From NCBI GenBank assembly GCA_035041965.1, contig JAPYMA010002305.1:1-64000 (forward strand): a stretch of DNA of 64,000 nucleotides, given 5' to 3'. Numbering within the stretch: position 1 is the stretch's first letter; each line of letters opens with the position of its first letter. Both the position numbers and the translations under genes were made by a program. Under the pieces are notes generated by a model that was given only the letters and a program-made list of their open reading frames with translations, searched no databases and had not been told where the DNA came from. This DNA is from Anisakis pegreffii (Eukaryota > Nematoda > Chromadorea > Rhabditida > Anisakidae). Shown piece by piece: positions 9,057-57,616 of the stretch.

Positions 9057-9270
9057 ATACCTTTACGTCAATTCGGCCAGATTCCGACCGAAGGATTCTG
9101 AAAGTCGCGTCAGGAATCCTGAACGTCGGAGTCGCAAAATGTGTACTCGGCGGAATTCCGACCGAAGAACTTCGAAAGTCGATCGGAATGCCCGATGTCA
9201 GCATGTCAAATTGTCACCTCGACCAGAATTCTGATCGCTGCAATCGCAGAAGGTCAATTCAGTCCAGTTT
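9057..9270. repeat. GC-richer imperfect repeat upstream of H3
   Basis: Two related blocks begin at about 9080 and 9160, each reading ATTCCGACCGAAG then a C/G-rich stretch ending GAAAGTCG. The tract abuts the MITE and is compositionally unlike the AT-rich surroundings. An 80-codon frame across it looks incidental. Confidence 0.5.
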
Positions 9271-9355
9271 CGATCAACCTTGATGATATTTGATTTCCCC
9301 ACCATAAATTCTTAATGCATTTACTTGTTCCTATTTCATTTGACGTATCGATTGA

Positions 9356-9889
<534 letters not shown>

Positions 9890-9943
9890 GAAGCGTGCGT
9901 AGCAGCATTCGGCGGCTCGTCAAACTTCAATTCCAAACCCAAC

Positions 9944-9959
9944 GGCCCTCTTTAGGGCC
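9944..9959 (+). terminator. Histone H3 3' stem-loop
   Basis: GGCCCTCTTTAGGGCC starts 54 bases after the H3 stop, with the same CCCAAC and ACAAATTAATAAACC flanks as the other histone genes. Confidence 0.93.
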
Positions 9960-11269
9960 ACAAATTAATAAACCAAACTTTGTCAATGATGCAAGTGTTC
10001 TTGTGCATAATAAATGAGTACGTGTGCTTTGTAGCTTGTGTGGGTATCTAGTAAGTTATTGAAAAGCAATTGTTCCAGTGCGGTTGCGTTGGTTACATTG
10101 CGGTGCTTTTGCTGACAACGGGTGCAGCCGTGCGTGCTTATGTGCTCACAAGCGTAGCACGAGCTGAAGCCTGTGTGTTGGTCTCATCACTGGGCTAAAC
10201 ATAAGTCTAAGTTTAAGCATTCTCCTGACTTGACTTGCGTTGATACACATGGCGCTAAGTGGTGATCTAAGCATACGCACGCAGTAGAGCCCGTTATCAG
10301 CAAAAGTGCCTGAACTGCACAAACCTATTGTCGGATAAAATAATAAAGCGTACGTACGAAGGAGGTACTTACATTGCTTGACATGTAGCGAAGTCGTCTC
10401 AGGTGACGCTTATTGTCCCATTTCTTTTCTCAACCGGATTGTTATTCAATCAATAAGTTGTTATCTAAAGAGGCTATCGAAATCGTCTCCATCTTTCAGT
10501 GCCGTTAAATGAGAAAACCTTGGAGAGTGCACCTGAACTGAAATGCAAAACTACTATAGGTGAAACCTTGTTGAGTTACGTCAAGTTTTACTCTGCTCCT
10601 GAAGATTTCAAAACTTACACATACGAATCCAATTCAATCAGCGATAATACCTGAGAGGAATTTTATGGGGCATTGAAAGATTTTATTGATAGCATCACAG
10701 TTACTTTGGCATAGATTATCGTCCAAAATATCTTGAATGCAAGCATATTCAGTAGGCGAAGACTGTTAACAGCTTACAAGGGAACGAAAATTATGCATTC
10801 GCTACCATTAGGAAGAATTATAATTTAAAATTCGCTGAAAGCATCTCCTATTCAAGAACAACAAATTTGCACAGACCAAAGAATTTATGAAACAACAAGG
10901 AAACGTTAGTTAACATTTAAAACGAATAAATATTTGAAACGAAACGAAACAAAAGATTTGAACACTGCAGATGAATGAACACATAAATAAACAAGTACTT
11001 CTTCAACCACATCCAAACGAACAATAACAAATAATTAGATACAATCCAAGTACCAATATCACATCCAGACGGTTATCACACCGACCAAAAATACCTACGT
11101 ATAAATTTTCGGACTTCATAAAAAGCTCAAAACAGGATGAGTTGTTGAACTACATCTCACCTATCAGTATCATCTCATGAATACATTTTGTCACATGAAT
11201 GAATCAATCGATCACAAAAAACGAACAGTTTGTTTAAAATTACTGCGCACTAATGATTTGACAGAAACG
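9960..11269. other. Spacer between H3 and syntaxin-18
   Basis: No gene recognised. Positions 10030-10350 are less AT-rich than the surroundings and have weak hairpin potential (CGTGCT and AGCACG near 10132-10165), but I could not match a known small RNA. The rest is AT-rich 3' flank of the minus-strand syntaxin gene. Confidence 0.45.
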
Positions 11270-29136: not shown

Positions 29137-30332
29137 TGGAATGTTTTCGTGGAAAACATCAATATTATAGGCATTTTAACATTTAGAGACAATCGTATTG
29201 CTTTGAGAATGAATCTATTGTGATTGCAAGATTATGATTGGTGAATGAGGCTTGTTTTCGTTCAATCAACCTCACTTATACCTGGATTACCTGCATTGGC
29301 CAGGCTATCAAACGTTATATGAAATTATATGAATGCAGAATTATATGAAATATTTGTATTTGAACGAGTGAACATTAAAATGGAATATTATTTCTTGTTT
29401 CCGTTCTAATTTGTGCATATTCGAAGATGTTATCATTAGAAATATTGCGTTATTAACACTGAACGTTTCGAGGTTCAACGTTGAGTTCTGGTAAGAATTA
29501 AGTGATCAAGGAACGTTTTTTGTTCGCATGAGAACAACTGAAACGGATGAAACTCATTTGAGAAGAAGCATTGAATAATGCGATGAACATGTAATGAGGC
29601 GTGTTTGAAATTTGACGTGGGAAGAGAATCAAAAAATTAGATTCAAAAGAGCAAATGAAATTTAAAAACTGAAATTACGAGTAACGAGGTAAAATTTTAG
29701 TAGCGAATAACGTTCTATGCTGGAATTTACTGACGAGCTAATTGTAACTGATGTTCACAACTTGGGAGTAGTTCATTAGAGCAATTCTGAGAAGGCTTGT
29801 AAGTGAATTTGTAATTTGAGTAAAGATGAGCTACTGAAACGCGTTCAGTTCGCTACTAATGAAATTTTCGAAAGAAAACTGAAAACGAGATTCAATTCAA
29901 GAATGCACACATGACGAATTGCGTGCCTGAACAAAAAAAGTTGACGGCCAATTGGATCAAGTGATGATGCTCAATGAACAACGACAAAATGACACAATCA
30001 TGAAAGTGATATCACGACGTGTCACAAATCAGCTATCGCCATAAGATACAGAATCTTAAGGTATCGTTATTGTTGGTAGTATCAAATCAGCAGGATCGAC
30101 GGGGTATCATAAAGAAGTACTCAAAAACTATAATTAAACGTATACGCATACGGTTGTTTGGTGCAACGAAATGGAAAAGAAATAAATAAGGAGACGCATT
30201 AAAATGCGCCTTAAATGGGAGAGTTCAGTTAACGAACAATGAATCTATCGGTCACGACAACAACAATGCCCTAAGCACGCACAAATCCGCATAATGCGTA
30301 TTTCAACATATTTTAATATATTCAAAAAATAA
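29137..30332. other. Spacer upstream of duplicated gene copy 1
   Basis: AT-rich, with only short frames. No gene, RNA gene or repeat recognised, apart from the start of the duplicated unit near 30300. Confidence 0.5.
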
Positions 30333-30390
30333 CGCAAATTGCGTGGAAAATTATGCAAAGTGACGATTGACATATGTGCAAAAACTGTAA

Positions 30391-30662
30391 ATTACTATGG
30401 ATAATATTGAAAATTTGCGTGCAGTTTCGATTTCGCTGACAAATCACAACAAAATATGCAAATTCGTGCATGAACTGAAGTTATAAAAGGGAGTCGGCGT
30501 TCGTCTCCAATATCGTCGTCCATTTGGGTAGTGCCGTACAACACTAATTTGTAGTGTTGTTGTTGTTGGGGCTATTTTGGGGTTGTGGTGATACTGGGCG
30601 ATTCGGCTTGGTTTGAAAGAATTATTTCATCACCACGATATTCGGAATAAGAACGAGGGAAA
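30391..30662 (+). promoter_or_regulatory. Promoter and 5' leader, copy 1
   Basis: TATAAAAG at 30482-30489 lies about 175 bases before the start codon. Downstream is a leader hairpin, ACAACACTA / TAGTGTTGT with a five-base loop, at about 30538-30560, followed by (GTT)n. Positions 30391-30641 appear base-for-base identical with 38533-38783 in front of copy 2. Confidence 0.75.
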
Positions 30663-31951
30663 ATGACGCAGTCACGGAAGAGTTATATCATGCGCAGCAC
30701 GGCGGAGCGTACGTTACGCTTCATGTTCAGACGACGGCCATGCATGATCGTGGCATTGTTGGAAGTGCTGCTTATGGGCATTCTGATTATGGTCTTAATG
30801 TGGATGATGATTATCTATGATAATGATACACGCAAAATTGCCTTGCTGGAAAAGGTTGTCGCTATGAGCAAATCGGATGAAGTGGATGAATTCGGCAAGA
30901 AATCAGACTTCTGGCGTTGTCAATACGACGTGCCCAAAGATCGCAAAACATCCGCGTACAACTTCGAATTGTGCAAAATATCCTCCGAACTGAGTCCACA
31001 AAAGTTTGCGTTCATAAATGAATGGCCAAACGACAGTTCTTGTACGGGACGTATGAAGAGTGTGCCCTGCCAGACGTATCGATCCAGTGAAATGCTTCGA
31101 GCCGACGAACTTGCCCCATATCAAGAACTTCCGCGAAGTTGCATGGGAGTAAATGGAGTGGCGATGCCCTATGCGTTGGTGAACGTGAATCGAGGAAGAC
31201 TCGTACGAAGAATCGCTTTAAAAAATTTGATAAAATTTAAAGGTTAGGTAGTGGAAACTTTCGAAGCAGTTAATTCTTTCTGAAAACATACACTCAACTC
31301 CTTACCAGACGAAAACAACTTCGTCACTTCGCACTACTTTGTAACAATTTAGAAAAAACTTCGATCTAATGAACGGTGAATCACGGTGAATCGCATATAG
31401 CATAGCAAAGTATTATCAGTTAAATTAATGACACGTTATTATTATTTTGATTTCTTCTGTCCTTTCAGCTGCCCCGAAAATTTTAACTATCAAATTTTCT
31501 ATTGCACAGAAATTATGTGTCATTCCTCATCGCCACTCGCCGATTGCATACATACTACTACTAGAATGTGCAAGTGCTTGTTATAACAATAACAGTAAAC
31601 TGATGATATCAGTATCAGTAATAATAATGATTATAATTATTGTGCAATAATGATGGCTGTCATCCAGGTCGCATCGTGTTATCCTCGGATCTGTTCATGC
31701 GATGTCCAAACTGTCGCGTGAATAGTCAGTATCATCGAATTAAACGAAGAGAGACGAGACAGGTAACTAAAGAGGTTATCGTCGATACAAGAACTCGTGT
31801 AAACGAAACGCGCAATCAAACCGTAGAATATTGTGCACGACTGCTGCGAACATTCGTTAAGGGATGGCCCGATTTAGTGATGTTTTGCGATACGCAGGAG
31901 GAGAGCGAGATTGACATTGATCGCAAGGTGTATTGTCCTTATAAGAAATAG
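30663..31951 (+). CDS. Unknown type II membrane protein, copy 1
   Basis: Not recognised. Two exons, 30663-31242 and 31668-31951, joined in phase 1 (AAAG|GTTAGG to CATCCAG|GTCGC), give 287 residues. A basic N-terminus (RFMFRRRPC) precedes one hydrophobic segment at about residues 28-52, so the topology should be type II with a C-terminal ectodomain of about 230 residues. That part has ten cysteines, including RCPNC at the start of exon 2 and YC/FC/YC near the end, and Asn-X-Ser/Thr sites (NDSS, NETR, NQTV). All ten cysteines are shared with copy 2. The paralogue's matching exon borders and phases support the model. Function is unknown; a surface or secretory-pathway role is inferred from topology. 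Confidence 0.8.
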
Positions 31952-32280
31952 AAATAACAAATTGTTTGGTTGCTGATATGAACCATTTATTGTTTTGTTG
32001 TTCACTGAAATGATGGTATTGGATGATTTGTTTTGTGATCGTGTTCACTTTGGATATTTTTCGTTGATAAACGCTCTTTTTCAGTTTAAAGACACTGATT
32101 TGAAGATTGAATTTGTGTATGTGCGTAAGATTTGTATAAGGTACGAAGATTAGATAACTAGTTCGTTGGGCTAACAGAATTCCAATTCAGTGGTTTGAAT
32201 TTCGAGTGAAATTCATACGAACAGAGTGCAACTTCACAGTACGACTGTATTATATGGGGATGAGTTGTATGTCTATGGTC

Positions 32281-32345
32281 TAACAGTAATAATAGTAATA
32301 ATAATAGTGATAATAATAATAATGGTAATAATAATAAAAATAATA
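32281..32345. repeat. AAT-type microsatellite, 3' flank of copy 1
   Basis: AATAATAGT/AATAAT-rich tract. A shorter version occurs in the same place after copy 2 (about 40555-40600), so it predates the duplication. Confidence 0.85.
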
Positions 32346-32930
32346 TTTATTCGCGTGATAATATATGTAGCAAAATTCGGTAGTGATAATCAAACCAGTC
32401 AGTCGCTCATTATAAGGTGAGGTGAGCAGAATCTAAAATGAAAACTCTAAATTTGATGATAGGTTGAACTCATAGATGAAGTAAGCGTTTTCGTCGAACC
32501 ATATCCGAATCAAAACCACTCTGAATGTGTTGAGAATACGCAAAATGCGTTTTCGGAAGGAAGAGGACTCATACGATACGTAGAGGTGATAGCGCGACAC
32601 CCGCTTGTCATGCAATATACGGGATAAGAAGCATTGTAAGTGAATAACGCATGGCCAGCCTTCTTGATAGAAGAATAAGTGGCATATGAGGAGGAAAACA
32701 AAAATGATTCGCATGTGGTGATGAGTCGCCTTCGTGCTTGCCAGGCACAAATCGACTGCTTTCGAGTTCTTCGTTCAGTTTCAATATCGGAGAAGAGCGT
32801 TGAGTAAAATTCTGGATAACGCGATGAATGATGGTGCTACTGCTGCTGAGATCGATCACATGCATGAAGCATGTGAGCATATGAAATGAAAAGAGTGTCA
32901 TGCATTCGCTCTACTGAATTCATTCCTATA

Positions 32931-32995
32931 ACATATGCATGTGCATGTGCATGTATGTATGTATGTATGTATGCATGTGTGTGTGTGAGTGTGCA
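32931..32995. repeat. Compound GCAT/TGTA/TG microsatellite
   Basis: ATGTGC units are followed by (ATGT)n and (GT)n. Artefactual His/Ala or Tyr/Ile frames occur on the minus strand. Confidence 0.9.
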
Positions 32996-34586
32996 TGATT
33001 TCATGCATGCATGTGCATGAACATCAGGAAACACCAACATCAATATTGATAAAGAAAAGAGCGACCGACGACGCATCGCAAAACAAAGCTACCAACCAAC
33101 CAACCGAGCGAGCATCTGAGCCAGTCAACTAGCAACAACTCTACGTTAAGAGAGTGAAACAGCCAGCGATACACCATCCCAACTCATGCTAACATGCTAA
33201 CTTCGATGTTAATGCCACTAGAGTAACATCACTAAAGCAAAAATAATACTGCCTCATCGTGCAGTATGAGACAGCATAGGAGGCCTGACGCTAGATGAGG
33301 TTTGTAAGTGCATAGAGTAGTGGTGCAGCTTGTTTGGGATATAACAACGATACTGGCACAGAGATACAAGCTTATTAGATGGCTAAATGAACACTGAAGA
33401 TATTACTCGAGATATGAATTGAAACGAACGAGCGAGCGAGCAATTGTTCAATTATTTGGATTTGTTTCGTTTCGTCACTGCATGGATGAATGCAGAGAAG
33501 CGGTGATGACCGAAAGAAGGCGCTCTCATTGACTGTCGTCTTGATTCTTCTCTTGTCATTCGTCTTGCCTCGAATCGCTCCACAAAAAGCCAACAATAAG
33601 AAGCTTCCGCAGTAGTTAGCTCTTATATCATAGACGACGACGCCTATGAAAGAATAGAAAGAAATCAACAAACACAGCTAGCTCATAAACTGTCCCATAA
33701 AAACTTATAATTTGCATAATGAATAATGATGCGTTATGCATGATGCGTGCACCACATCGAAAGATAATTTTGAGCACATCACATCATATTTATGGCTGAT
33801 TGATGCTTGGTCTGGTAAGTTTTTTCTAGATGATGTGGTGAATTTGTATTGGAATGGAAAGGCGTTTAGGCGGAATAGGAAGCGAACAGCCGATATATGG
33901 ATGATGGAATAGTCGATTATGAGTGATCTCAATATTGTATGTTGTTTGAGGTTGACTTAACTCGGACTATTCCGCTGTTCATAATCAGATCTGTCATGTT
34001 TGCGATAGTTGATGAAGCAAAGAACTGCAATTGGAGGTGAGAGTGAATCAAATGAAGCGCACAAAAATATGGATAGGATGGATGCATTCGCTTGTAGATT
34101 ATTTGATGGCGTGAAAGGGGGTAGATGAAATGAACGAGAAGTCATACTGAAACGAGAAAATTTGCTTTACACTAACTTCCATCAATATCATATAGGATAG
34201 ATTGAAGGAAAACGCTTGTCCGGATAAGTACGACGCAATTTTGATTTCCGCTCTATGATGAACACTTGCTGAGAAGTGAAACGGTTCATAAAAGCAACAC
34301 ACCTTATAAGTGACCATTTAGAGTTAAGCACTTAAATAAATCCTCCCAACAGCAAACGTATCGTTGCATACGGGTATTAATCTACTGGATAAAACATCAT
34401 TAGATTGAATAATTATTATAAAGAAGATATGCGACGGCTGTGTCGAATGATCTGTAAACGAAGTGCTTGAATAGGCCATAAAAACATTCACTTTGTTGAA
34501 CGATATAAATTCATTTTCAATTGCAATATTATGGTTAAAGATTGCAAAAAATGCTGCTAAAAGCGTATCGATATTTGTTCTATAGG

Positions 34587-34651
34587 TATTGAGTTGAATT
34601 AATATAATATAAGGACGGAATATTGAGTTGAATTAATATAATATAAGGACG
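34587..34651. repeat. Tandem duplication, period 34
   Basis: Two exact 31-base copies, beginning TATTGAGTTGAATTAATATA, at 34587-34617 and 34621-34651. Confidence 0.9.
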
Positions 34652-35474
34652 TATTTAAATATGGAATACCTTGAATAATAAGTACTAATTGAGGTGAGTG
34701 AAGATAGATTTGACCGCAAAGTGGAATGAATTGATTTCAAAATGAAATGAATTGAACTGAATGAATCAAATGACGAATGCATGAAACGTGAGAGCTCTAG
34801 CACTAGACGGGAATATTATTGATGGACAAGACTGATTAATAGACTGCAGTCGTGATATAAGATGGCAATCTTCAGTTGACACGTATCTTTATACGAATGT
34901 TTTTTACGAGTGTATTTTATTTGATTATTTACAGCATCTGTTCGTTAGTCACTACATAAATATAAAATGCTTCATTGGTGACTGACGACGAAATTTTAAG
35001 AACGTTCAAATCGTTTATGCTACGATATCTCATATGCATATATTTTTATGGATCTTTTGGTTACATAAAAGCCATTTAAAGTAATGACAAGATCTCCCAG
35101 AAAGGGAAAAGATTCTCGGAAAAGAAGCGATCAGATCAGTGAACATGTTACTGGTGAGCCAGCAGGCAGACAAGCAGGTTTCTCTGATTAGCGGATGCAA
35201 CGAACGAACACTATTGGAGTAGCGCATTTAGCTGTAAAATGAAACGACCAACTTTACTTCCACACAAAAAAATGGTGGACAGTATATGTGAAAGAGCTGT
35301 GTTTGGTGTCATCTCTTTCATCAACATTTCGTCAACAAACTTCCGTATGATACAGTTTCTGAATGTAATATTTGATAAAATTTCTGTATGCATTCCATCA
35401 AAACAATTCAAATGCAGTCTTTATAAGCATAAGCTTATACAATTGACGTTCACCATTTCACACCAAACAATACA

Positions 35475-35526
35475 CGGATCAATCATGCATTCAGTTGCAT
35501 CGGATCAATCATGTATTCAGTTGTAT
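35475..35526. repeat. 26-bp tandem duplication
   Basis: CGGATCAATCATGCATTCAG plus six bases at 35475-35500 is repeated at 35501-35526 with two C-to-T changes. Confidence 0.9.
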
Positions 35527-37689
35527 CAAAAGAACTTCGTGACACTCACCTAAAATCGTATTCATTAATTTCGTTCGCAATGCATTCCAAATCCAGGAAA
35601 TCATCCTTTCCAATAGACTGTTTGTTAAGATATACAAGTGAGTATCTAAAAATTGCTGATGGCCAACTGAAGCTGATGACCAACTGCTTCATTCGTGAAT
35701 GTGAACGGGACTGATGACACCGCTTCGTTGATAATTTATAATGCAAACACGATTGGGAATATTCGAACAATACATCATGAAAATTATCATTTTTATGGAA
35801 AAAGTTTGCGAAAAACAACTGGAATCGCGAACACTGTAAAATCCAATGCAAATAACGATTAACTTTTGAGCAATACACCATATGAATGAGTTTTGCACTT
35901 GATTACGAACAAAACAGTATAGGTATGATACATGCATTCCGAGAATCAACGCAAAAGCAAAAGTATCCATGGTCTTGGAAAGATACCCAGTACTGATAGC
36001 TAGAGAACCGTATCAAGACTAAGCAAGACAAAAGCAAAGCGCTGAACCAACCGATTGACTCAAACAAATCCATTTCTAGAAAAGAACACCGTTGTGAACT
36101 CAATAATCATAACAGCAAATAGTAATGATCAACTGATTTATTACAAATTAATCTATTAATTTCGACAAATATTCAGCGAGTTGACTCCTAATGATCATTC
36201 GTTCTTTCAAAAAAAATTTTTTTTTCAAAAGAACTTAAAATTCATTTACTTTATTCATTTACTGCCGTTTTTTACATTCCACTTATAACCATGCTAAGTA
36301 GCTCTCAGCCAACTAACAGTGTCGAAATATTCGCAAAAATTTGAAATTCTAAGTCTAAAGGAACGACAACTAGCGATCACTATACTAGAAATTGATCTGA
36401 ATTACTGCAAAATATGTGATTTCATCCATTGATTACTTGAATTATTTGAAAATGTTGGCTGAGCAAGTGCCATCTTGAAGTGGAACCATAAGGTAGGCAT
36501 TGATTGCGTCATACAGTCCAGGTTCACGACAAGTCGGAAACCTTTCCATAGTGCACAGCATGAATCTATCGAAATTTTAATGCGAAGTCTTTTTCTGTTG
36601 GCATTGCCAATTTTTTTTGGCAATTCCAACAAAATCTATCGAAACTCTGTTGGAAAAACTGTGCCAATTTTTTCCAAAATTTTCGAAATCGCTACATAAT
36701 CGACACGAAAATCTACGAGATTTAATGTGAACTTTGCTCAGTCAGAACTTGTAATTTCTGGTTGCTCAATGCAATTGCTAATTATCAGAGTGACTTTCTT
36801 ACTTTATTTCCAGATCAAATAATTATTATACTAGATAATTTCCATGCAATTAAGCGCAACAACCTGCGTTTTGTATATTCAAAATAAGATATGAAAACAC
36901 TACTGCCATGACGATTAGACGATAGACTAAAGCAATCGATTGGTTACGTTCAGTCATCAAATATGACAGAACGGTGGGCGGATGAAAGGATGGATCACTC
37001 ATTCAGTTCAATTGCCGGATTATGTAAAGCTGTCAGCCCTCATCAAACTACCAGACAGCTTATCTTGAAAAATCCTCGAATATACAGATCGATCAAATTC
37101 ACATCTCTCTAGGCTTTCAGGATTAATAGACGCATGTCTCTGGAAAACGTCAACGAAGAACGATCAAATATTAGATTCATATTGCTCGTAAACGATTGAA
37201 CGAAAGCGATAGATGACGACTAAAAATAGATGCATATTCGAATATAAATTACGTACACATAATCGGAAAAAGCTTTCTTTTAGCTCCGAGATACAATTCT
37301 AAAAAAGTCTGCACACAGACACACGGATCAATATGCTGCTTAGACGTACAATCCCATACTAATTCCACTTATCGTTGTGCTCATGGATTCAGCATGCTTT
37401 GCGAGATTCATGGATCGCATCATGGATTAAGCATGTACGGCAATTTCAATGTGTATATACCAATAAGCCTAAGCCATCACGAACAATGCGTAAGCTTCAA
37501 CACACACCAAAATAGTCCTCCTCATGCTTCAGCATAGTAAAGTATGGCTTCATTTATTTATGTATGTGCTCCATACACTTACCATCCATAAAAAAAGTCA
37601 TCTGCCAACATACTGGATCCATCCTCAGTAGATCTACATATGCTATCGGCAAATCCATGAACTCAATGAATATAATATCTGTGGAATAT

Positions 37690-38420
37690 GCATTGCATTA
37701 CTCATATATTACTACATTTCATTACTCAATTTGTTCGTATTACATGTTTAATAAGGCAACCAACAACAACGTCTAATTTAGCCGGTTATATTCATGAACA
37801 ATGGAAGCGATTCAATTTGCGATACTCAATATCAGTTTCTATTGCATACGCATCAAATTCTGGAACATTTCCATATTATACAGAAAGTAGACACTACAAT
37901 ACGCAAAAATCTACCAGTGTATCGACGCAATTATATAAATCATAAGACGAGTTGCAATGTCACAGTCTCTTGATTCCATCTATAAATTGGAACCTTACAT
38001 CAGACAAGAAACAACGCAAATAATTATGAAACTATTCGCATGCATATCTGCAAAAAAAGATTGTAGATGAGTCGGAAATAATTTCGCAGAGTTTGTCGAA
38101 ATTTTTCAAAGAAGAACGAGGGAATTCGTTGTTTTCACCAACATTCGTCATCAAATCGTTCCATCGATGACCGACTTTGTTCAACACCTCAATATGACTT
38201 CCACGTAGCATTTCAGCGATCCACGAGAAATCGTCATTGGTCGTATCCGAGACAAACCAAGGATGTGCCTGTAAAGCGAACTCATCTCAATAAAACATCT
38301 TCATTCATTTATCCATTATCAATATTCCATCAGCATCTTAAAAAATGATCATCAAAAACGTCAGCACAACTCATCACATCACAACACTTCAAAATGGCCC
38401 ATGAAATGGAATTGAAAAAG
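37690..38420 (-). pseudogene. Truncated ARMT1 3' fragment with lone exon 8
   Basis: Positions 37690-38030 match the 3' flank of the intact ARMT1 gene (41660-42010). They are joined directly to sequence matching 42890-43200. The latter includes a full exon 8 (about 38268-38143, minus), still open and encoding AHPWFVSDTTNDDFSW then EMLRGSHIEVLNK, plus its flanking introns. Exons 9 and 10 and all of exons 1-7 are missing, so it cannot encode an enzyme. It is a by-product of the segmental duplication that created the two membrane-protein genes. Confidence 0.85.
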
Positions 38421-38532
38421 AATGAATCCACATAATGAAAATAGTAAATTCATATGCTGATTTCAACATGTTCAAAACATAACGCAAATTACGTGGAAAA
38501 TTATGCAAAGTGACGACTGTGCAAAAACTGTT

Positions 38533-38805
38533 AATTACTATGGATAATATTGAAAATTTGCGTGCAGTTTCGATTTCGCTGACAAATCACAACAAAATAT
38601 GCAAATTCGTGCATGAACTGAAGTTATAAAAGGGAGTCGGCGTTCGTCTCCAATATCGTCGTCCATTTGGGTAGTGCCGTACAACACTAATTTGTAGTGT
38701 TGTTGTTGTTGGGGCTATTTTGGGGTTGTGGTGATACTGGGCGATTCGGCTTGGTTTGAAAGAATTATTTCATCACCACGATATATCGGATAAGACCGGG
38801 GCAGG
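38533..38805 (+). promoter_or_regulatory. Promoter and 5' leader, copy 2
   Basis: TATAAAAG at 38625-38632 and the ACAACACTA/TAGTGTTGT leader hairpin are as in copy 1. The 251 bases 38533-38783 read as identical to copy 1. An 8-base difference lies just upstream. Confidence 0.75.
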
Positions 38806-40147
38806 ATGGCGCAGTCACGGAAGGGTCGTATGGTGCAGTCACGGAAGGGTCGTATGGCGCAGTCACGGAAGCGCAGCACGGCGGAGCGTACGTTACGCTT
38901 CATGTTCAGACGACGGCCATGCATGATCGTGGCATTGTTGGAAGTACTGCTTATGGGCATTCTGGTTGCGTTGTTAAAGTGGCTGATGATTATCTATGAC
39001 AATGAAGTACGCAAAATTGGCGTGATTGAAAATGTTGTCGCTATGAGCAAATCGGATGAAGTGGATGAATTCGGCAAGGTATCAGACTTCTGGCGCTGTC
39101 AATACGATGTGTTCAATGCCAGCAAAACATCCGCGTACAACTTTGAATTGTGCAAAATATCCACCGAACGGAGTCAACAAAATTTTGCCTTCGTAATTGA
39201 AGAGAGTTTGCGTGCAGAAAACAATGATTCTTGTACGGACCGTATGAGGAGTGTGCCATGCCAGACGTATCGCTCGAATAAAATGCTTCGAGCCGACGAA
39301 CTTGCCTCCTATCAAGATTCAGAACTGAAAGGTTGTGTGGGAATGGCTGGAGTACCGATGCCCTATGCGTTGGTGAGTGTGGATCGAGGAACGCTCGTAC
39401 CAAGAATCCCGTCAGAAAAGTTGAGAAGTTTACAAGGTTAGGTGATGAACACTTTTGAAGAAGCAATTAATTCTTTCTGAAAACATACACTCAACTCCTT
39501 ATCAGACGAAAATAACTTAGTCATTTCGCACTACTTTGCAATCATTTAGAAAAAACTTCATATCTCATTCCTGGTCATAATAAACAGTTCGACCTAATCA
39601 ACGAATACATCACGATAAATGCCATATAGCATAGCAAAGGAGGTTTTTTTTCACAGTCGTATCAGTTAAACAATCAACGAGATATCATTGTTTTTTGATT
39701 TCTTCGGTCATTTCAGCTGCCCCAAAAATTTGAAACATCAAATTTTGTATTGCACAGAAATCGTATGTCATTCCTAGTAATAATAATAGTGAACTGATAA
39801 AATCAGTATCAATAAAAAAATGATAATTATTAGTATTGTGCAATAATGATGGCTGTCATTCAGGTCGCATCGTGTTATCCTCGGATCTGCTCATGCGATG
39901 TCCAAACTGTCGTGTGAAAAGTACGTATTATCGAAGTGACAAAATAACCGAAGTGGAATTTAGCACTAATATGCTTTGGTCTTGGTATTGGCCAATTATA
40001 AACGAAACGATCAAACATACAATAGAATATTGTGCACGATTGCTGCAAACATTCGTTAAGGGATGGCCCGATATAGCGATGTTTTGCGATACGGAAGAGG
40101 AGAGCGAGATTAACTTCGATAGCGATGTGTATTGCCCTTCGAAATAA
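38806..40147 (+). CDS. Unknown type II membrane protein, copy 2
   Basis: Paralogue of the 30663 gene; family unknown. Exons 38806-39436 and 39864-40147 join in phase 1 (CAAG|GTTAGG to CATTCAG|GTCGC), giving 304 residues. The N-terminus has a seven-to-eight-residue motif three times (MAQSRKGR, MVQSRKGR, MAQSRKR), absent from copy 1. The membrane segment is at about residues 40-63. All ten ectodomain cysteines are kept. Exon 1 is moderately diverged (small indels near ENNDSC). After RCPNCRV, exon 2 has a block with almost no identity to copy 1 (including LWSWYWP), then IEYCARLLQTFVKGWPD is again conserved. Asn-X-Ser/Thr sites include NASK and NETI. Confidence 0.8.
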
Positions 40148-40345
40148 GAGAATGTTTGGTTGCTGATATGAACCATTTATTGTTTTGTTGTTCACTGAAA
40201 TGATGGTATTGGCTGATTTGTTTTGTGATCGTGTTGACTTTGGATATTTTTCGTTGATAAACGCTCTTTTTCAGTTTAAAGACACTGACTTGAAGATTGA
40301 ATTTGCGTAACTGCGTAAATTTATGAGCGATCAACGACGTATTTG

Positions 40346-40412
40346 TATCGTGTTATCCTCGGATCTGCTCATCCGATGTCCAAACTGTCGTGTGAAAGGT
40401 ACGTATTATCGA
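40346..40412 (+). pseudogene. Duplicated fragment of exon 2 in 3' flank
   Basis: About 67 bases repeat the start of exon 2 of copy 2 (ATCGTGTTATCCTCGGATCT onward through the CPNCRV codons). Two changes stand out: ATGCGA to ATCCGA, and AAAAGT to AAAGGT, which creates a strong donor-like GAAAG|GTACGT. Copy 1 lacks this insertion at the same place. It may be inert or serve as an alternative terminal exon. Confidence 0.8.
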
Positions 40413-40611
40413 GGTGCGAAGATTAGATAACTAGTTCGTTGGGCTAACAGAATTCCAATTCAGTGGGTTTGAATTTCTAGTGAAATTCATACGAACAGAG
40501 TGGAACTTAACAGTTCGACTGTATTATATAGGGATGAGTTGTGTGCTTGTGGTCTGATAATAATATTAACAATAATTATAATAATGATAAAAGTAATGTT
40601 TATTCGCATTA

Positions 40612-41225: not shown

Positions 41226-42367
41226 GGAAGATGCTTCATTACGGTTTTTTCAATGAGGGGATCAATTTTTGATCCCGGGATCGAACAAATTTTGAAATAT
41301 CGATGCGGGACAGGATAAAAAAAAAACACTTTCGAACCAATATATTCATTACTAATCAGAAAAGAGTTAATTCAACAAATTATTGAACAAATCCAAGAAA
41401 ACAATTTATTCAAATTCAAATTAATATTTCATATAATGATGCCAATGATCATGCCGCAAGAGCATACTGCATATTCTATGCTAAGGCATCTTGTCATCTC
41501 GGGTCTAAGCTAACAACAGTACACTTGCATGTGAATACGAAATTCTTGATTCTCAAACACTTATTTACAATGCTTCAAGTCCTTTTTTTTCTCAGTATTA
41601 ACGTCAGCTGAATTCTGCCGTTTCAGCTGAGTACGCATCGCAATGAATTTTGGACCAACTACTACTCATATATTACCACATTTCATTACTCAATTTGTTC
41701 GTATTACATGTTTAATAAGGCAACCGACAACAACGTCTAATTTAGCCAGTTACATTCATAAACAATGGAAGCGATTCAATTTGCGATACTCAATATCAGT
41801 TTCTATTGCATACGCATCAAATTCAGCAACATTTCCATATTATACAGAAAGTAGACACTACAATACGCAAAATCTACCAGTGTATCGACACAACTATATC
41901 GTAACAGCATAAGATGAATTGCAATATCACAGTTTCGTGATTCCATCTATAAATTGGAACCTTACATCGGACAAGAAACAAAGCAGATAATTATGAAACT
42001 ACTCGCATGCACATCACAACAAATGAATTAACACCTTACACCGGAAATTCCCTAACCACAAAATGAACTCGCTTCAGCAAATCACCATTGCAGTATCGAA
42101 TATAAAAACAAAAATTATAAATCACCTCAAACAACAATTGACAAATCAAATTCAGAAACCCTTCCATGAACTACAATCTGAGCAATACGTACATAAATAC
42201 CGATGATTCAAAACAGAATGAAAAGAAAAATACTCAAATTCAGATGTATATGGTGAAATGGCGTCGCATATCGAAACTGTATTGCTGCGAAGAGATCGGC
42301 ATAATTCTCGTAAATATCACACGATTACAGAAACGGATCACTTCCAACGCCTATGCAATCAATCACT
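41226..42367. other. 3' flank of ARMT1
   Basis: No gene. Positions 41660-42010 are the source or sister of 37690-38030. A perfect short hairpin, GGGATCAA-TTT-TTGATCCC, lies at about 41257-41275. Confidence 0.6.
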
Positions 42368-45300
42368 TCAAGAACTGAACTGAACAACTGCATAATCTCC
42401 GGTGACCATCCAATCTTTACTCGTGCCGTGCTCTTTCTGAAGTTTTTCAATCGTCTTCGCACTCAGACCAACTTGCGTTTCGGCTTTCAACGTTCGAAGA
42501 GCCACTAATGGAGCTGGAGCGAATCCACGTAAGGCAAACTAAAATGACACCACCGATTATCACCGCATATTCGCGAATCAACCACACAATCACACCATAA
42601 AGTTTTCACCATCTTCCAAAAACAATCTCAACGCAACAATAACATCGATGAAAACGCAAACATGAAATGATGTATATTCTTGTAGAAAATGGTCACCTTA
42701 AAAGGAGTATCAAGAGGCCAATCACGATCGCCCACCAACTTTCTGTAGTTCAAATCACCTTTGAAAATGATCAACGCTGATTTCGAGAGATCCTCGTATA
42801 AATCACCAGCATGTGATCGCATATCGCAATACGCAAATGGCATCGTCCAAAAGGGATGCGCACGAAACTCGAACTTATCCTGAAGCATTTGCAAAAAAAA
42901 ATTGTAGATGAGCAGGAAATAATTTCGCAGAGTTTGTCGAAATTTTTCATAGAAGAACGAGGGAATTCGTTGTTTTCACCAACATTAGTCATCAAATCGT
43001 TCCATCGATGACCGATTTTGTTCAACACCTCAATATGACTTCCACGTAGCATTTCAGTGATCCACGAGAAGTCGTCATTGGTCGTATCCGAGACAAACCA
43101 AGGATGTGCCTGTAAACCGAACTCATCTCAATAAAACACCTTCAATCACTTATCCATTATCAATATTCCATCAGCATCTTAAAAAATGATCAAAAACGTC
43201 AGCACAACACGAATTGAAAACTCGCACCTTTCCATGCAAAACCACTTTTTCCACTTTCAATTTCGTAACAAAATAATCCGCCAGTACCATATCGGCGAAT
43301 AACTCAAAACCTGCGTTATCCAACACAATATCCACTCGTTTTGACTCGACATTCCTTCAAAATTTCTCATTCAGGTTTTGAAAACAATAAGTCGTAACTT
43401 TAAAACAAAAAGCTTAAGCTGCAAGTGAAATGAAGTTTTGTGCTCACTCTTCCTATCACTTTATAAAAGTGTTCGAGTGAGTTACAATGCGATAAAGTAT
43501 GAGATGAACTGCCATCAAAATACTTCCACATCGAACTGACACGACTGACTAAACTCAAAGTTCGGATATTCGTGCAATATGATTATCACAAGCAATCTGA
43601 ACATAGTCGAATCAATTTCAGAATGAAAATCAACAACGATAACCTCAGTATTTCATTCACTTCATCGATTTGATTCACAAGAATTTTATCAGTCAAATGT
43701 TGAAGTTCATCTATAGGTGACGTACAAGTTGCAACACCTTCACCCGATGATAATGATAAATCACATTTGTTACCCCAGAGACAAACCTAGAATTGAATAA
43801 AAACAGAAGCGAATGGAGAGAATTTTTTTCCATAAAAAATACAAAAGGTACGAGCCACCATTTAGTATGACCAATTAATCTATGCAGATAACGAGACTCA
43901 TGGAGAAGTTCGCTGGACGAACCATATGACCAATTCAGATAAAGTGAATGAACCTCTAGAGAATTGTGAATAATCAAGACTGGTGGTACCTGTAACAGTT
44001 GAGAGGATGTCGCACTTTTATCTCCGTCTTTTATATCATCGGATTCAATTTGCATTAAATACTTCGCTATTTTTTCCATAGCCGGCAAACTGCAAATAAA
44101 TCCAAAAACATTTGAAAATTTTCGAGAAACACCACAGATTGCATATTTTACACCACAAAGGGTTCAACTACCGGATGAAGTCAAAAGCATGCCAATTTTC
44201 AAACATCGTTTCATTGAAATTCGACAATAACTTGAAATTCCTATTCAACATTTCGAGAGATTCTAACAAAAACAATTCATTACCTTCGGAGGAGAGTGTT
44301 GAGAAAACAGTACGCAATTTTCAAAAAGATAATATAACTTTTGGATAATATTACTCGAGGAAGAATGCTGGAATTTGATGCAAAACCTGGAATGTCACCT
44401 ACCCATCAATGTAAGCGTTCTGTTTCTGAGCAGCGAACGGGTCGAATTGCTTTAAAGTGGTCGTTTTTCGAAATGAGCCAACGATACGTCGATACAAATA
44501 ACATTCCACAAACAGCCAATCCATACGATACCAAGTCAAATCTTTGTCGCTTCTCTTCAATTACAGTCACTATCTTTAAGGTTCAGCTGATTGAAGCTAA
44601 ATTCGGCACAATGTTTGCCATCAATAAAGCTTTCATAAATCTGTCATTAAAAATCAAACTTAGAAAAATGAGAATACCGCACAAAAATCCATCACTGTAA
44701 GTTGAAAAAATCGGAACGTACCGCTTTGCGTTCTGTTTCCAGTTGATCATTCCATACAGTGACATCCTCAAAATCATCATCGAAGGCTCTCAAAGGCTTA
44801 TCCGTGGCCATATGATAACGCATTTCGGACAATTCTCCAATGACGGCTTTGATATCCCGATCGCCATCCTGAAATACCAGCAGCCCGATTCATGATCAAA
44901 TGCGTCTGGATAAGATCAAAAATATCAAAATTTCCCTTACTCAAATTGAGTCGAATAAAACAAATCAGCACATTTTTAATCACTGAAATGACAAGAAAAG
45001 TCAAAGAGTGTGGAAGTACTAAACCTTCGGATGGATAGACAAATGTGTTTGACGATACCGATGCACTTGGTCGATTACTTTTGTAACAATTTTTGGCCAA
45101 CGGTCCTTGATTGTCTTGAAGACGAACGTTCTGAAAGGTTTTTAGATATTTCCAAAATTTGCTCGAATCGGAACAGAAACAATCAAAAAGCAACAATGAG
45201 ATTCATTGCCTCCAAATCAAAGAATGATCCTCATGTTAATGAGAGAAAACCTTTTCTTAAGGAGAAACATACGAAAAAAGAAAAGGATTTTAAGTCACTA

Positions 45301-45422
45301 GAATATGCACCAAACTAAGACTATTATCCAGTGTCAGATAAAAATTACAAAATAAACTCATAAACAACATACCCTTGCTTGATACCATTCAAAGGTGGCG
45401 CTAGAGAGGGCACAGGTGGCAT
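42368..45422 (-). CDS. ARMT1: DUF89-family damage-control phosphatase, ARMT1
   Basis: Orthologue of human ARMT1/C6orf211. The DUF89 family comprises metal-dependent phosphatases acting on sugar phosphates and damaged metabolites; ARMT1 was also reported as a protein glutamate methyltransferase. Ten exons (minus): 45422-45373, 45130-45025, 44868-44722, 44554-44403, 44089-43990, 43786-43644, 43354-43228, 43109-42984, 42879-42697, 42538-42368; phases agree, giving 434 residues against about 441 in human. Landmarks: FKTIKDRWPKIVTKVID, VECYLYRR, LWGNKCDLSLSSGE, the metal-site VLDNAGFE (Asp245, Asn246), HPWFVSDTT, FKGDLNYRKLVGDRDWP (Lys357, Asp359), and LRTLKAETQVGL. Catalytic-site motifs are intact. 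The acceptors of exons 4 and 7 (TTGAAG) are non-consensus. Exon 8 is duplicated at 38.1 kb. Confidence 0.95.
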
Positions 45423-47257
45423 TTCAGAACTTTCTACCAAATTGAGAAGCAAAAAAAGACCAATTAACATCAATCAACTTCCGGCCAGTTGATCGGTTCA
45501 GTTTTCGTTAACAGTCTGAAGTGAAGTGCGAGGTGAATGCTGCACAAAGAATTATTTCACAAGACTGCAAACTATTCACACATCAATAAGATATAATTTT
45601 GCAAAATGTTGACGATTCAACAGCTGATGTTGCAAATTGAATGGTGTTTTGGCGAAATTAGATCGCAAAACTAGTCAGAGCCTCAGAGAAAGTGAGCATA
45701 CGTGTTAACAACCAATCCGGGCTTGGGACGGATGAATAGATGAGTTTATGAGCGTGGAATACGGTATTCAGTGCATTCTACTGTAAAACCAGAACAGGTA
45801 TATGGTATATATAGTGATAGAGAATGAAACATGCAGCATTTCAAACCCATTTTCATTTCATAAAACGTTATCGTGAACTTGTGTCTCATAAAGTGCTATT
45901 GAATGTTGTTTTTAAAGTGAAAAGATTGACGGTAAACTCGGCAGACTACAATCGATGTAATTTCCCTCAATAAAGTTTTTCCTCAGTTTTGAAAAGGGAA
46001 CTGCAGGTGCTGTCTGTAATAGTTTTAAAAAATTTCCATCATCACTTCAACTTATCACCGAGATTCTTTGGACTATGATTGTCAGGAAATCTTGATTGCT
46101 TGATCCTTATTCATGATGAACACAATCATAAAAATTTATTCGATCGGAACACTCATAAATCGTCCATATATTTTATGAAAAGTGCCTCACATGTCTCACA
46201 AGTTAATGAAATGGAATTAGAATTGTCTGGATTGTCTAATGGAATGCAATTGTCTTAAATCAAATGCAATTGTGTGCAAGTGGTTCATCTAAATGCGAGC
46301 TATCCTCTGAATCACACTCAAACTTCTCGAGCCAACAAACACGAGATAGATCAGCGTTCGATTTCACTCCTCGAAAAAACCAACGATAAGTATTCGTTGC
46401 TAAACGCACAAATGACTAATTCTTTCCGATCCCACATGATCAGCACAACAATATCATTGTTTGCTATATAAACCAGCAGCCAATCTGATGGTATACAACG
46501 CTGATTGTGAGCGGAAGTCTTATGCATGCATGAAAGGGACAACAGTTATGCGTGTGTAGTGATTCGTGAGAAGCGTTTATTTTACAAGCTAAAATCGTAT
46601 AGTATGATCTTATGTTAGCGGTGTGTTTATGCACTGCTTAAATTTATCACATTTTACAACAACAACAACAACAACAATAACATCAACAATTTCAGTTCAC
46701 TTTAGTTGATTCGTTCATGAATCTCTGCTCAAATTTTTATTCATATTAGCTATTGTGGGCATATTATGTTGTCTATGAGATTGGTTGATAGCTTCGATGG
46801 TATTTGAATCACTCCTGCTATACGGCCATTTATTTCCATTAACATATGATAATACGTTTGTGTTGGTGTGAATGCACTAATTTTCTCAATAAGTTAGCAA
46901 AGCGATGTTTTTCAAACGAAAGAACAGCACTTTGCTGGTATCGTTAAAATAAGTTTAAATGAGTGGAAGAATTTGAAGTGATGAAGAATATGATGAGTAT
47001 GCGGGAAGAATCTTAAGCATTTTCGAGAGATTATAAAGATCAACGAGCGATCAACGCGATCGAGTGAGAAGAGATTCAGAGAATCCTGAAAATTTCTTCG
47101 ATGCTAATCGTTTCTACTTGAATCATACGGGAAATGTTTGCAATCATTGTTTCATGACTATTGAGTCATACGTTTATCTATTCAGCTATCGGTATTCGTT
47201 CCGATTGAAAGTCTCTTTAATAACATCACCAGTATTCCTGTCTATCGGTTTCTGCAT
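45423..47257. other. Region upstream of ARMT1
   Basis: Probably contains the ARMT1 promoter. No other gene established. A short plus-strand frame at 46274-46471 with two Asn-X-Ser/Thr sites could be an exon but lacks support. (CAA)n occurs near 46660. Confidence 0.45.
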
Positions 47258-53279: not shown

Positions 53280-54805
53280 ATTAGGGTGACCATCTTCAAG
53301 CTACCGGTACCCTCAAGTTTGCTCAGTAACATGCCAATTTCTTTACATCATTAGGTTTCCCATATTCTCTACTTCCAGAAATGTATATATGTTGTCAAGC
53401 GATTTTGCTTACTTGAGGAGATATAGCTAATTTTCTGAAGCTATCTCAAGTAGCTCGGCGACGCTCGTTCTAATACATCCTATCGCTATTGATCAATCTA
53501 TACAATACTTTAGCAATATCAGGGTTACCATTTTCAAATTGATCGTGTCCTCAGGTTTGCTCAGTAATATGGCAATTTCTTTACATCATTTGATTCCCCA
53601 GATTCTCTGCTAGAAAGCAGAGATTCTGCTCAATCGAATGATGTACAAACTTGAATATGTTTCCGAGCAAGCTTTAGAAGACACTAGCCTCGAATGTACC
53701 CATATTTCTATAGTAATTATAATATGCATTGATCTATAGTGATCAATCGCATATCAATGAGCACCTCAGCGCCAGTTCAGATAGCTTTAATCAAATAGCT
53801 ATAGCTCCTCAACTAAGCGAAAGATCCCACCTCTCCTCATTATCCCAACTCACATTACTCTACTACTCATCTTCATCATTCTTTCTTTATCCTTCTTCTA
53901 TTGGGTAGCGCAGTTACCCAATACACTCGATGTGCCTTTTCTTTGAAAAGCACAAAACACTAGCTTCGGGATGATCTTTGATTATCCCACCTCTCTTCAT
54001 TATCCCAACTCACATTACTTTACCACTGCAATATCAAGGCTACCATTTTCAAATTGACCGTGTCCTCAGTTTTGCTCAGTAACACGGCAATTTCTTTACA
54101 TCATTTGATTCCCCGGATTCTCTGCTTTCAGAAATGTATATGTGTTATCGAGTGATTTTACCTACTTGAGGAAATATAGCTGATTTTCTGAAGCTATCTC
54201 AAGTAGCTCGGCGGCGCTCGTTCCAATACATTGTATCACTACTGATCAATCTATGCATTACTATAGTAGCAATAGGGTGACCGCCTTCAAAATAACCGTG
54301 TCTTCAGGCTCCCCAAGACACCGTTAGTTTGAAGACGGTGACGCCACTGCTACTATAGTAATGCATAGATTGATCAATACTAGTGATACAACGTATTGGA
54401 ACGAGCGCCGCCGAGCTACTTAAGATAGCTTCAGAAAATCAGCCATATCTCCTCAAGTAAGCAAAATCGCTCGACAACACATATACATTTCTGAAAGCAG
54501 AGAATCTGGGAAATCCAATGATGTAAAGAAATTGGTATGTTGTTGAGCAAACCTGAGGAGACGGTTAGTTTGAAGATGGTCACCCTAATTCCTCTATAGT
54601 AATGTACACATTGATCAGTAGTGATACAATGTATTGTAACGCGTACCGCCGTTAACTTGAGATAGGTTCAGAAAATCAGCTATATGGTCTCAAGTAAGCA
54701 GCTCATATACACATGCCAATATCTTCACGTCATTAGATTCCCCAGATTCTCCGCTTTCTGAAATGTATATATGTTTTCGCGCTATTTTGCTTACTTGAGA
54801 AGTAA
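53280..54805. repeat. Cluster of head-to-head fold-back repeats
   Basis: At least six copies of a ~230-bp unit alternate in orientation: inverse at 53284-53515, inverse/forward pair at 53515-53750, inverse at 54030-54290, forward at 54310-54600, forward at 54580-54690 and inverse at 54695-54805. The unit contains GGTGACCATCTTCAAACTAA, AACATGCCAATTTCTTTACA, CTTTCAGAAATGTATATATG, TTGCTTACTTGAGGAGATA and CTCAAGTAGCTCGGCG. The largest palindrome is centred near 54305. A separate ~50-bp duplication (CCCACCTCTCCTCATTATCC) occurs at about 53826 and 53985. Confidence 0.85.
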
Positions 54806-57616
54806 TTAATTTTAAAAATTTATAATTTTGCCACTAACACATATGTAAACATGATAATAAATTCCGCGTGGTTGAACAACGACGTCATGTTTGACTGAAT
54901 TCGCCCACATCAGTGGTTCTTTTAGAGGGTGAAATTACCCATTTTGTGTAATTTGGAGGTGTCAAGGGGTAATGGAGAGGGATGGGAAGTTAGTATTCCG
55001 CGCAGCTTTTATATTATGGTAGAATGCCATTGTAATGATGTTTTTTTAACTCGGGTATTTAAGTGCGGTTAGTTGATGGCAACAGTCTTCATTCTTCTTT
55101 CGTTCGTTTCAAAAAGGGTTTTCATTCTTTTCCATGCTGCTATAATCGCTCTTATATCTTTTATCATCAAGAATGTTCTCTTCTGCTAATTTCTCATTCA
55201 TTTCACTTCACAATTAAAGTCAAATTCCTATTCTATCAAATACACTCTATAATTGATCATCGGACTGTCGAACGTTGCTGAGCAATAGTATTCGATTGCT
55301 GCATTGTTGATTTCGGCTATCAACACTCGTCAACGTATCCATGATAGATTATGATTATATCAGAGGGTTGTTGATTATATTGGATAGAATATGTTCAGCT
55401 ATCGCAGAAAATTTGTACTTGAAGGCATATTTTAAAGTGCCTCGTGAGTATAAGTGCTAGAGCACCTAAAAATTACATTTAAATGCACTTACAACGAAAA
55501 AGTATTGCGGCTTATCGATGCTTCCAGTTTTGGGTGATCTTTCTGCTAAACATCAACTATTTATAAACGATTCTCCAGTCCAATCCTCAAATACAATGCT
55601 CATGGAATCAACTAAACGATGTCAGTTAGTAGCTAAAAGTGCTGGTGTTGTTAATGCTCGCATAAATAATTAACTTTTTACTCACATCTCACACGATTAC
55701 AATATGACGAAAGACGCCATTGCGGTGGGGTTGGGTTGGCGTGACACTTAATTATGTATTGCAATTGTAAATCAATATTTAATTAAAGGCAACTCGTAAA
55801 ATAGGTACAAACACACGAATGCGCACTTATTCAGATGAAAGTGCATGAAAAGTCCAAGTGGAGAAAATTGCTGAAGGCTCGTTTTCCATTAATAAATTCA
55901 GATAAATCCTTTAAAGTTTGACAATTCCACTCGCTTCTCCAGTCAGATCATAATGCTCTTCTTAAGTCGGTCAATCAAAAGTTTAGATCGTGTTGCAGAT
56001 CAATTTGATACGATGGTATCGTTTTTGTTAGTCGTATGATCGGCACTCCACCAAATGCCATCTTAGTCGTAGCTTAAAACTGAAGTTTTAGTGAAGAATG
56101 CGGTATATTTGAGCTAATTTTACTAGCAAAGCAGTTAGAGCATAATTATATCGAAGGACGTTTTCACTTCAGCTCAACAGCAAGAAAAATTATTCGGCTT
56201 AAGCGATTCTTCTTGATGGGGAATGTGATTAACGAAGTTATGGCACTGCTCGACAAAGTTGTTTAATCGGTAATTGCTTCTTAAACATGAGACAATTTTT
56301 TTTTCTCACCACGAACTCTCCTAGAACAGTGACGATTGACTGACTGGTGCATGTGATGGGAGAAAGAAGGTGTGAGAAAAAATATTAACGCATTACGTTC
56401 AGCGGTTTAATCCGATCTTATGCTTGGCTTAGACATCCGATGTTTCAAGTTAATATCAGTGGACGAGTGAAGGGATTCAGTGCAAGGAGACGATTGAAAA
56501 TGAGCTATGCGAGAGGTGGTGGGTTCGAGTTTTCCACCTTGCTGCTACTACCTTTTCATTCATTATCAGTGTGAATCAATGGTGCTATTCAACGATTTCC
56601 ACTGAAATATGTCAGAGGGAAAATGCTGCGGAAACATCAACGGATAGAGTTATAGTTCTAGAATCTATGTACATTTTGCCGCATAATATTTGAAAATTTT
56701 CGCAGACAATTCGTGTTTCCGTGAATATTCATGGACGGAAGGAAGCATTTTTGAGTGGTTAATAATTCGATGTATACGTACCAATGGTTGTTTAGTTTTA
56801 GTTGAGGTTTTGCGGTTTTGTGTCATCGAGTGGTTGTTTTGTCAATCGCTGTGAGCGGTCGGCGGAATATTTATTTTATTAGAGTCGTGATTATTTATTG
56901 GTTTTGTGTTTGGTTACGTTGAATTATGCAAAGTGTTCATCGCAACTAATGAATTGTTCGGTTGGCCTGCTCGCCTAGCCAGCGGGATGGCGTAAATTGA
57001 GGCAAAAACAGTGCGAACGGAAACATTGTGAGCATTGTGGCCAGCAACTTTAGTTACAAACGTTTCATACACTGGCCAATCCAGGCAATCCATGTAAACG
57101 TCGTACCAATGTGCTAACCACACACTACTTCGGCACTACTCAGTAATACTCGGTATCGTCCAAAAACATCGTCCAAAATCATGCCAATTCACTCTTCTTG
57201 AATGGTAAAAAAAGTGTACTAATGGTGCATGAAAATAGAAATATGAAGAGATCTGAAGTGAAACTATCATCACGAGTTGATCAGTCTCATCGTTCAGATC
57301 AATGGGTTTCAACCTCTGCTGCTCAATCACTCGCTTTGCTTACGATCGCAACTTAATTGCACCGTTTTCTTGCCAGTCTAACAATACGAAATCTATCAAA
57401 TAGTAAAGCAAAATCGCAGCATTTATCTGTCTAATCCAGAAGAGATATGCACGAGTCTCTCGGGAAGAAGTTCAACGACTTAATTAAATATATATGATGT
57501 ATGCGATGCACTTTCGATGCGTATGCGCATAAAAGATCTCGTTTCCATTTGTTATTATTCCATTGACACATCAAGTAAGCAAGCATCAAGCAACCAAACT
57601 AACCATTTCGACGGCT
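54806..57616. other. Spacer without recognised gene
   Basis: No convincing exon. Minus-strand frames at 56914-57123 and 57136-57330 are slightly less AT-rich, but have no splice-phase or motif support. A T-loop-like GGTTCGAG at about 56520 was examined as a tRNA and rejected. Confidence 0.45.

What the first reader, a model, noticed from the sequence alone, without database searches (positions are those of the whole stretch)
30391..40147. Duplicated unknown gene: identical promoter, diverged ectodomain
The 251 bp upstream (30391-30641 against 38533-38783) read as identical and the introns are about 90% alike, yet the coding exons carry many amino-acid changes and indels while all ten ectodomain cysteines are kept. 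Coding DNA diverging faster than the promoter and intron is the reverse of neutral expectation. It suggests diversifying selection on an exposed cysteine-stabilised ectodomain, or gene conversion that homogenises only the 5' part. The family itself is unrecognised and may be undescribed.
Basis: partly seen in the sequence, partly recalled or inferred. Interest (0 to 1): 0.85.

Follow-up and report, generated by a model that had tools for sequence, protein, structure and literature searches.

The report
Duplicated Anisakis-only membrane protein gene
A parasitic roundworm carries two side-by-side copies of an undescribed membrane-protein gene that share an identical control region while their outer parts have drifted apart at about the neutral rate and kept their cysteine skeleton.

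Summary
The pair is real. 252 bp upstream are identical (30390-30641 = 38533-38784), so the finding's second interval is out of register by one base. The worm is an Anisakis: copy A has 275 of 287 residues identical to an unnamed A. simplex protein. All ten ectodomain cysteines are kept. The intron is 84% identical, not 90%, and exon 1 diverges no faster than it (JC 0.176 vs 0.175). dN/dS is about 1 (ML omega 1.00, p=0.99): neither positive nor strong purifying selection is shown. Divergence is mosaic, which fits patchy gene conversion; constraint on a TATA-like promoter and structured 5' leader is the rival. Four family loci were found in the genome and no match outside Anisakis in three protein searches. 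The two distant paralogues share five intron positions; the window copies lack all five and carry one private intron, so their ancestor was probably an old retrocopy. It was later tandem-duplicated together with part of the neighbouring ARMT1-like gene. Function is inferred only: a type II, cysteine-rich membrane glycoprotein.

The parts
30390..30641 (+). 5' identical block of copy A: TATA-like box at 30482, 21-base inverted repeat 30539-30559, probable 5' leader
   Evidence: 252 bases identical to 38533-38784; positions; 30510-30662 folds at z -3.06. Promoter and leader roles are inferred.
30663..31242 (+). Copy A exon 1: basic cytoplasmic tail, signal-anchor segment, first half of ectodomain (5 of 10 Cys)
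   Evidence: the A. simplex protein P0001 has the same length, 287 aa, and reads across the same joint
31243..31667 (+). Copy A intron, GT-AG, phase 1, private to the A/B pair among the four loci
   Evidence: its sequence was found only at A and B in the genome
31668..31951 (+). Copy A exon 2: CPxC motif, variable linker, C-terminal Cys block
31731..31790 (+). Hypervariable linker (35 of 60 aligned bases differ between A and B)
37699..38370 (-). Truncated duplicate of the 3' part of the ARMT1-like gene, end of duplication unit 1
   Evidence: matches 41663-42015 and 42887-43208; JC 0.063 and 0.041
38533..38784 (+). 5' identical block of copy B, TATA-like box at 38625
38806..39436 (+). Copy B exon 1, starting with a 24-base unit (MAQSRKGR) present almost three times
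39437..39863 (+). Copy B intron, GT-AG, phase 1
39864..40147 (+). Copy B exon 2
40347..40416 (+). Partial extra copy of the start of exon 2 in the 3' flank of copy B
   Evidence: 67 of 70 bases identical to 39869-39938
42380..45440 (-). ARMT1-like (PF01937) gene downstream of copy B, part of which was co-duplicated; outer limits read by eye
   Evidence: Pfam E 1.4e-18 for the frame 42628-42975; 42771-43127 scores below the cut-off (E 0.0079) and 43711-44163 has no match; sequence

Best explanation
A and B are two functional genes of a small, so far Anisakis-only family of type II single-pass membrane glycoproteins: basic cytoplasmic tail, one signal-anchor helix, and a 10-cysteine ectodomain with a CPxC motif and a C-terminal WP...CD...E block. 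Their common ancestor most likely arose as a spliced (retro)copy of an intron-rich relative, gained one intron and a new TATA-type promoter, and was then duplicated in tandem together with the 3' part of the neighbouring ARMT1-like gene. Since then frame and cysteines have been kept, other residues have drifted at omega about 1, and patchy gene conversion has kept some stretches alike, most recently the promoter and 5' leader. Shown: copies, open frames, cysteines, intron positions, mosaic divergence. Inferred: retroposition, intron gain rather than loss in the relatives, conversion rather than constraint, membrane topology, co-expression from the shared promoter, cell-surface or secretory-pathway location.
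For: Identical 252 bp and clustered differences. omega 1.00, p 0.99. Cysteines 10 of 10 and exon indels 5 of 5 in frame. Four loci (weak C332 hit set aside). Five introns with phases 0,0,0,0,2 in both paralogues, C1457 and C644, at columns 0 to 2 apart; A and B have none of them, and their one phase-1 intron interrupts sequence that both paralogue models read through. The 5' block occurs only twice in the genome and gives no match at the two paralogue loci. A. simplex P0001 is the orthologue of A: A=P0001 against B at 83 sites, P0001=B against A at 1, so the A/B split is older than the split from that worm and the identity of the 5' blocks needs a later or continuing cause. Co-duplicated ARMT1-like fragment. 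Anchor helix with block pLDDT 85-94 at residues 31-50 in both models.
Against: No expression data. No DNA from another Anisakis could be reached, so conversion cannot be told from constraint for the 5' block. Assembly error cannot be excluded without reads. A and B have extra residues beside two ancestral intron sites relative to both paralogues, which fits imprecise intron loss as well as clean retroposition. No poly-A or target-site duplication was sought. dS (0.24) and intron (0.175) exceed the divergence of the co-duplicated ARMT1-like fragment (0.04-0.06), which a single duplication with uniform rates does not predict.
Confidence: 0.6

Rival explanations
1. The 5' block is identical because it is functionally constrained (TATA-type promoter and structured 5' leader), without gene conversion.
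For: Leader folds better than shuffles, z -3.06, 1 of 200 as good; TATA-like box and inverted repeat.
Against: At the lowest yardstick divergence in the same duplication (0.041) zero changes in 251 bases has chance 2.7e-5, so nearly every base would have to be constrained. Other long identical runs (76 and 45 bases) lie in coding sequence, synonymous sites included.
Confidence: 0.2
2. Positive (diversifying) selection on the ectodomain drives the divergence.
For: High amino-acid divergence with all cysteines kept; variable linker dN 0.78, dS 0.63; ML omega 2.05 for the tail and membrane part, not significant (p 0.34).
Against: omega for the ectodomain 0.81 (NG86) or 0.91 (ML, p 0.69); differences about equal at the three codon positions (33, 29, 33 in exon 1); intron diverges as much as exon 1.
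Confidence: 0.15
3. One or both copies are decaying pseudogenes evolving neutrally.
For: omega about 1.
Against: Both frames open through 287 and 304 residues, 5 of 5 exon indels in frame, splice sites kept, 10 of 10 cysteines, intact orthologue of A in A. simplex.
Confidence: 0.07
4. The identical block is an assembly artefact (gap filling or copied reads).
For: One exact block with sharp edges; no reads available.
Against: Both blocks sit in continuous flanks that are homologous but diverged on both sides (7 of 74 bases upstream, 9 of 21 just downstream).
Confidence: 0.08

Closest known systems
Unnamed A. simplex protein P0001 (287 aa)
   Same: 275 of 287 residues identical to copy A, same length
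   Different: No function or Pfam domain given; no A. simplex protein equivalent to copy B was listed
Unnamed A. simplex protein P0002 (302 aa), locus C644, and locus C1457
   Same: Basic tail, anchor segment, cysteine pattern, CPxC, WP...CD block
   Different: 27-33% identity to A and B; six exons modelled with five introns at matching positions
Retrocopies in Caenorhabditis (PMC3532220, abstract and outline seen)
   Same: Copies made through RNA, many judged possibly functional by the authors
   Different: This pair carries an intron, is tandem-duplicated and is far diverged from its relatives
Tandem genes with gene-converted stretches (general knowledge, recalled)
   Same: Mosaic identity between neighbours
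   Different: Here the longest homogenised stretch is promoter plus leader

Membership tests
Retrogene | Lacks the introns of its intron-bearing relatives | tested here: met
   0 of 5 intron positions of the two paralogues present in A and B
Retrogene | Promoter not shared with the intron-bearing relatives | tested here: met
   5' block found only at A and B; 30301-30662 gives no blastn-short match at E 0.05 in the two paralogue loci
Retrogene | Poly-A tract and target-site duplication | not tested
   Not sought; an old copy would be expected to have lost them
Retrogene | Precise joining at all lost introns | tested here: inconclusive
   Relative to both paralogues A has 6 extra residues at the exon 4/5 site (columns 211-216, introns at 210 and 208) and 21 just after the 5/6 site (columns 256-276, intron in 253); placement depends on the alignment
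Gene-converted tandem pair | Identity runs longer than chance | tested here: met
   252-base run, 0 of 10000 shuffles; in the gene body a 76-base run, 0 of 5000, and a second run of 45, 0.0008
Gene-converted tandem pair | Paralogues closer than orthologues in the tract | not testable with these tools
   Only the protein of the A. simplex orthologue is held
Gene family under positive selection | dN/dS above 1 | tested here: not met
   omega 1.00 overall, 0.91 ectodomain, neither different from 1
Any Pfam-A family | Score above the curated cut-off | tested here: not met
   Best 14.5 bits against a cut-off of 25.4 for copy A, none for copy B; P0001 12.9 bits
Solved structure | Sequence relative in the PDB | tested here: not met
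   One match up to E 10, at E 0.53

The most novel reading that the evidence does not exclude
A genus-restricted surface-protein family in which the fast-changing linker of the A/B pair is former intron: the extra residues begin within three alignment columns of the exon 5/6 intron of the relatives, so incomplete intron loss would have made a new variable loop, which the two co-expressed copies then diversified while conversion kept their promoter common.
Probability: 0.1. Interest if true: 0.6.

Novelty: new member of a known kind. Interest (0 to 1): 0.38.

Why it matters
It describes an orphan membrane-protein family of a fish-borne zoonotic worm and gives a small, clear case of an intron-poor copy that seems to have acquired an intron and a promoter, then became a tandem pair with a homogenised 5' end and freely drifting ectodomains. 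Orthologues from sibling Anisakis species would separate conversion, constraint and selection.

Tried and rejected
Positive selection as the main cause: omega not above 1. Omega at columns where the two paralogues agree against the rest gave no useful contrast (1.69, p 0.42, 66 codons, against 0.98, p 0.92, 220 codons). Weak genome hit C332 (E 1.32) as a fifth member: no anchor segment or cysteine pattern seen by eye in the frames printed. Fold comparison: the two models have mean pLDDT 39.4 and 38.5, so no fold search was made. PDB match to a TMIE chain, E 0.53, covers profile positions 32-77 around the membrane stretch and is taken as chance. Zinc-ribbon and other Pfam hits are below cut-off. 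A Cys-rich frame inside the intron was dropped because it does not continue the exon 1 frame through the upstream acceptor. A short intron match at C1457 (18 bases, E 0.018) was not pursued.

Errors of my own: the copy B model was one base short at exon 1, so its copy-B figures are void; one search replaces them. The C1457 protein typed into searches has one residue too many at the exon 5/6 joint (so also in alignment A1, used); searches use the corrected one. Searches used 251 bases of the block, which one search shows to be 252.
Full report
Observation. For this region the self-comparison gives one 1.9-kb direct repeat, 30310-32133 against 38460-40322, with further matched pieces downstream to 32572 and 41239. 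The identical block is real and is 252 bases long: 30390-30641 equals 38533-38784. The finding's own pairing (38533-38783 against 30391-30641) is one base out of register and gives 176 mismatches; in register the 251 bases have 0. Among 1754 aligned bases of 30310-32133, with 241 differences, the longest identical run is 252; the longest in 10000 shuffles was 99.

Gene models. Copy A: exon 1 30663-31242, intron 425 bp, exon 2 31668-31951, 287 aa. Copy B: exon 1 38806-39436, intron 427 bp, exon 2 39864-40147, 304 aa. The first homology search found one protein with E up to 10 among 404 candidates: an unnamed A. simplex protein, P0001, of the same length, 275 of 287 residues identical to A. The window is therefore from an Anisakis, another species or another isolate. 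P0001 is the orthologue of A: it agrees with A against B at 83 sites and with B against A at 1; A agrees with B against it at 6, and at 4 all three differ. No A. simplex equivalent of B was listed; this may be an assembly or annotation gap.

Rates. Jukes-Cantor divergence: upstream 30310-30390 0.101, identical block 0, last 21 bases before the start codon 9 differences, exon 1 0.176, intron 0.175, exon 2 0.289, 3' flank to 32133 0.057, farther flanks 0.173 and 0.129. Differences at codon positions 1, 2, 3 are 33, 29, 33 in exon 1 (193 codons) and 27, 18, 22 in exon 2 (93 codons). NG86 over 286 codons: dN 0.211, dS 0.242, ratio 0.87; ectodomain 0.81; bootstrap P(dN>dS) 0.23 and 0.15. ML codon model: omega 1.00 (p 0.99) overall, 0.91 (p 0.69) ectodomain, 0.79 (p 0.37) ectodomain without the linker, 2.05 (p 0.34) tail and membrane part. 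So exon 1 does not outpace the intron, and positive selection is not shown. Yet the genes do not look like decaying ones: 5 of 5 exon indels are multiples of three against 2 of 7 in the intron, and 10 of 10 ectodomain cysteines are kept where 141 of 223 other aligned residues are.

Mosaic. Differences within the gene body are clustered: variance per 60 bases 53.8, shuffled mean 8.2, 0 of 5000 as high; exon 1 holds identical runs of 76 and 45 bases. The co-duplicated neighbour gives a yardstick. The minus-strand gene downstream of B has an ARMT1-like domain (PF01937, E 1.4e-18 for one of three frames tested, a second below cut-off, a third without match), and 37699-38370 is a truncated copy of its 3' part with JC 0.063 and 0.041. 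At the lower of these rates, zero changes in 251 bases has chance 2.7e-5. The gene body looks older than this fragment, so either parts have been converted or rates differ; this is not resolved. The 5' leader folds better than shuffles (z -3.06, 1 of 200 as good), so constraint may add to, or replace, conversion.

Family and origin. Searching the own genome with the two exons of A found copy B and two more loci, C1457 and C644; searches with the products of those loci added only one weak hit, C332, which was set aside. The tool scores only its best candidates, so more distant members may be missed. C644 corresponds to the A. simplex protein P0002 (4 differences in 250). Both paralogues have five introns with phases 0,0,0,0,2; their alignment columns are 72/73, 120/118, 156/156, 210/208 and 253/253. 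A and B have none of these, but one phase-1 intron at column 230, where both paralogue models read through. The 5' block has no other copy in the genome. The simplest account is a retrocopy with a new promoter and a gained intron. Against a clean retrocopy, A carries 6 extra residues at the lost exon 4/5 site and 21 just after the 5/6 site relative to both paralogues; the latter is the hypervariable linker. Other gaps lie away from intron sites, and gap placement depends on the alignment. The polarity of the private intron is not proved without an outgroup.

Identity of the protein. No Pfam family passes its cut-off, no solved relative is found, and three protein searches return only Anisakis proteins (1, 1 and 2 hits among 404, 225 and 3963 candidates). 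The search needs shared five-residue words, so distant nematode relatives may be missed. Models are poor apart from the anchor helix. A basic tail before one hydrophobic helix suggests type II topology (general rule, recalled). N-glycosylation motifs occur in both copies, four in A and three in B.

Literature. I searched for Anisakis with genome assembly and simplex (20 of 42 papers listed), intron gain with retrogene and nematode (12 of 21), Anisakis, gene family, taxon-restricted, any two (10 of 98), and gene conversion with tandem duplicates, Caenorhabditis and upstream (10 of 17). No listed title or abstract start names this family; full texts were not read. Of PMC3532220 the abstract and outline were seen.

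Noticed in passing
4321-9983: Histone cluster: H2B (-), H2A, H4, H3 frames recognised by eye, and a histone 3' stem-loop at 9939-9983 (Rfam RF00032).
   Followed up: no
40347-40416: Seventy-base extra copy of the start of exon 2 in the 3' flank of copy B, 67 of 70 identical.
   Followed up: no
37699-38370: Truncated duplicate of the ARMT1-like gene's 3' part, lacking the equivalent of 42016-42886.
   Followed up: partly
38806-38871: Copy B start has an in-frame 24-base unit almost three times, copy A about once.
   Followed up: no
30539-30559: Inverted repeat in the 5' leader of both copies, in a leader that folds better than shuffles.
   Followed up: partly
53280-54813: Dense inverted and direct repeats, including a self-complementary stretch 54042-54580 at 87%, with relatives at 1700-2226.
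   Followed up: no
5743-6736: Several overlapping direct repeats of about 160-350 bases between histone genes.
   Followed up: no
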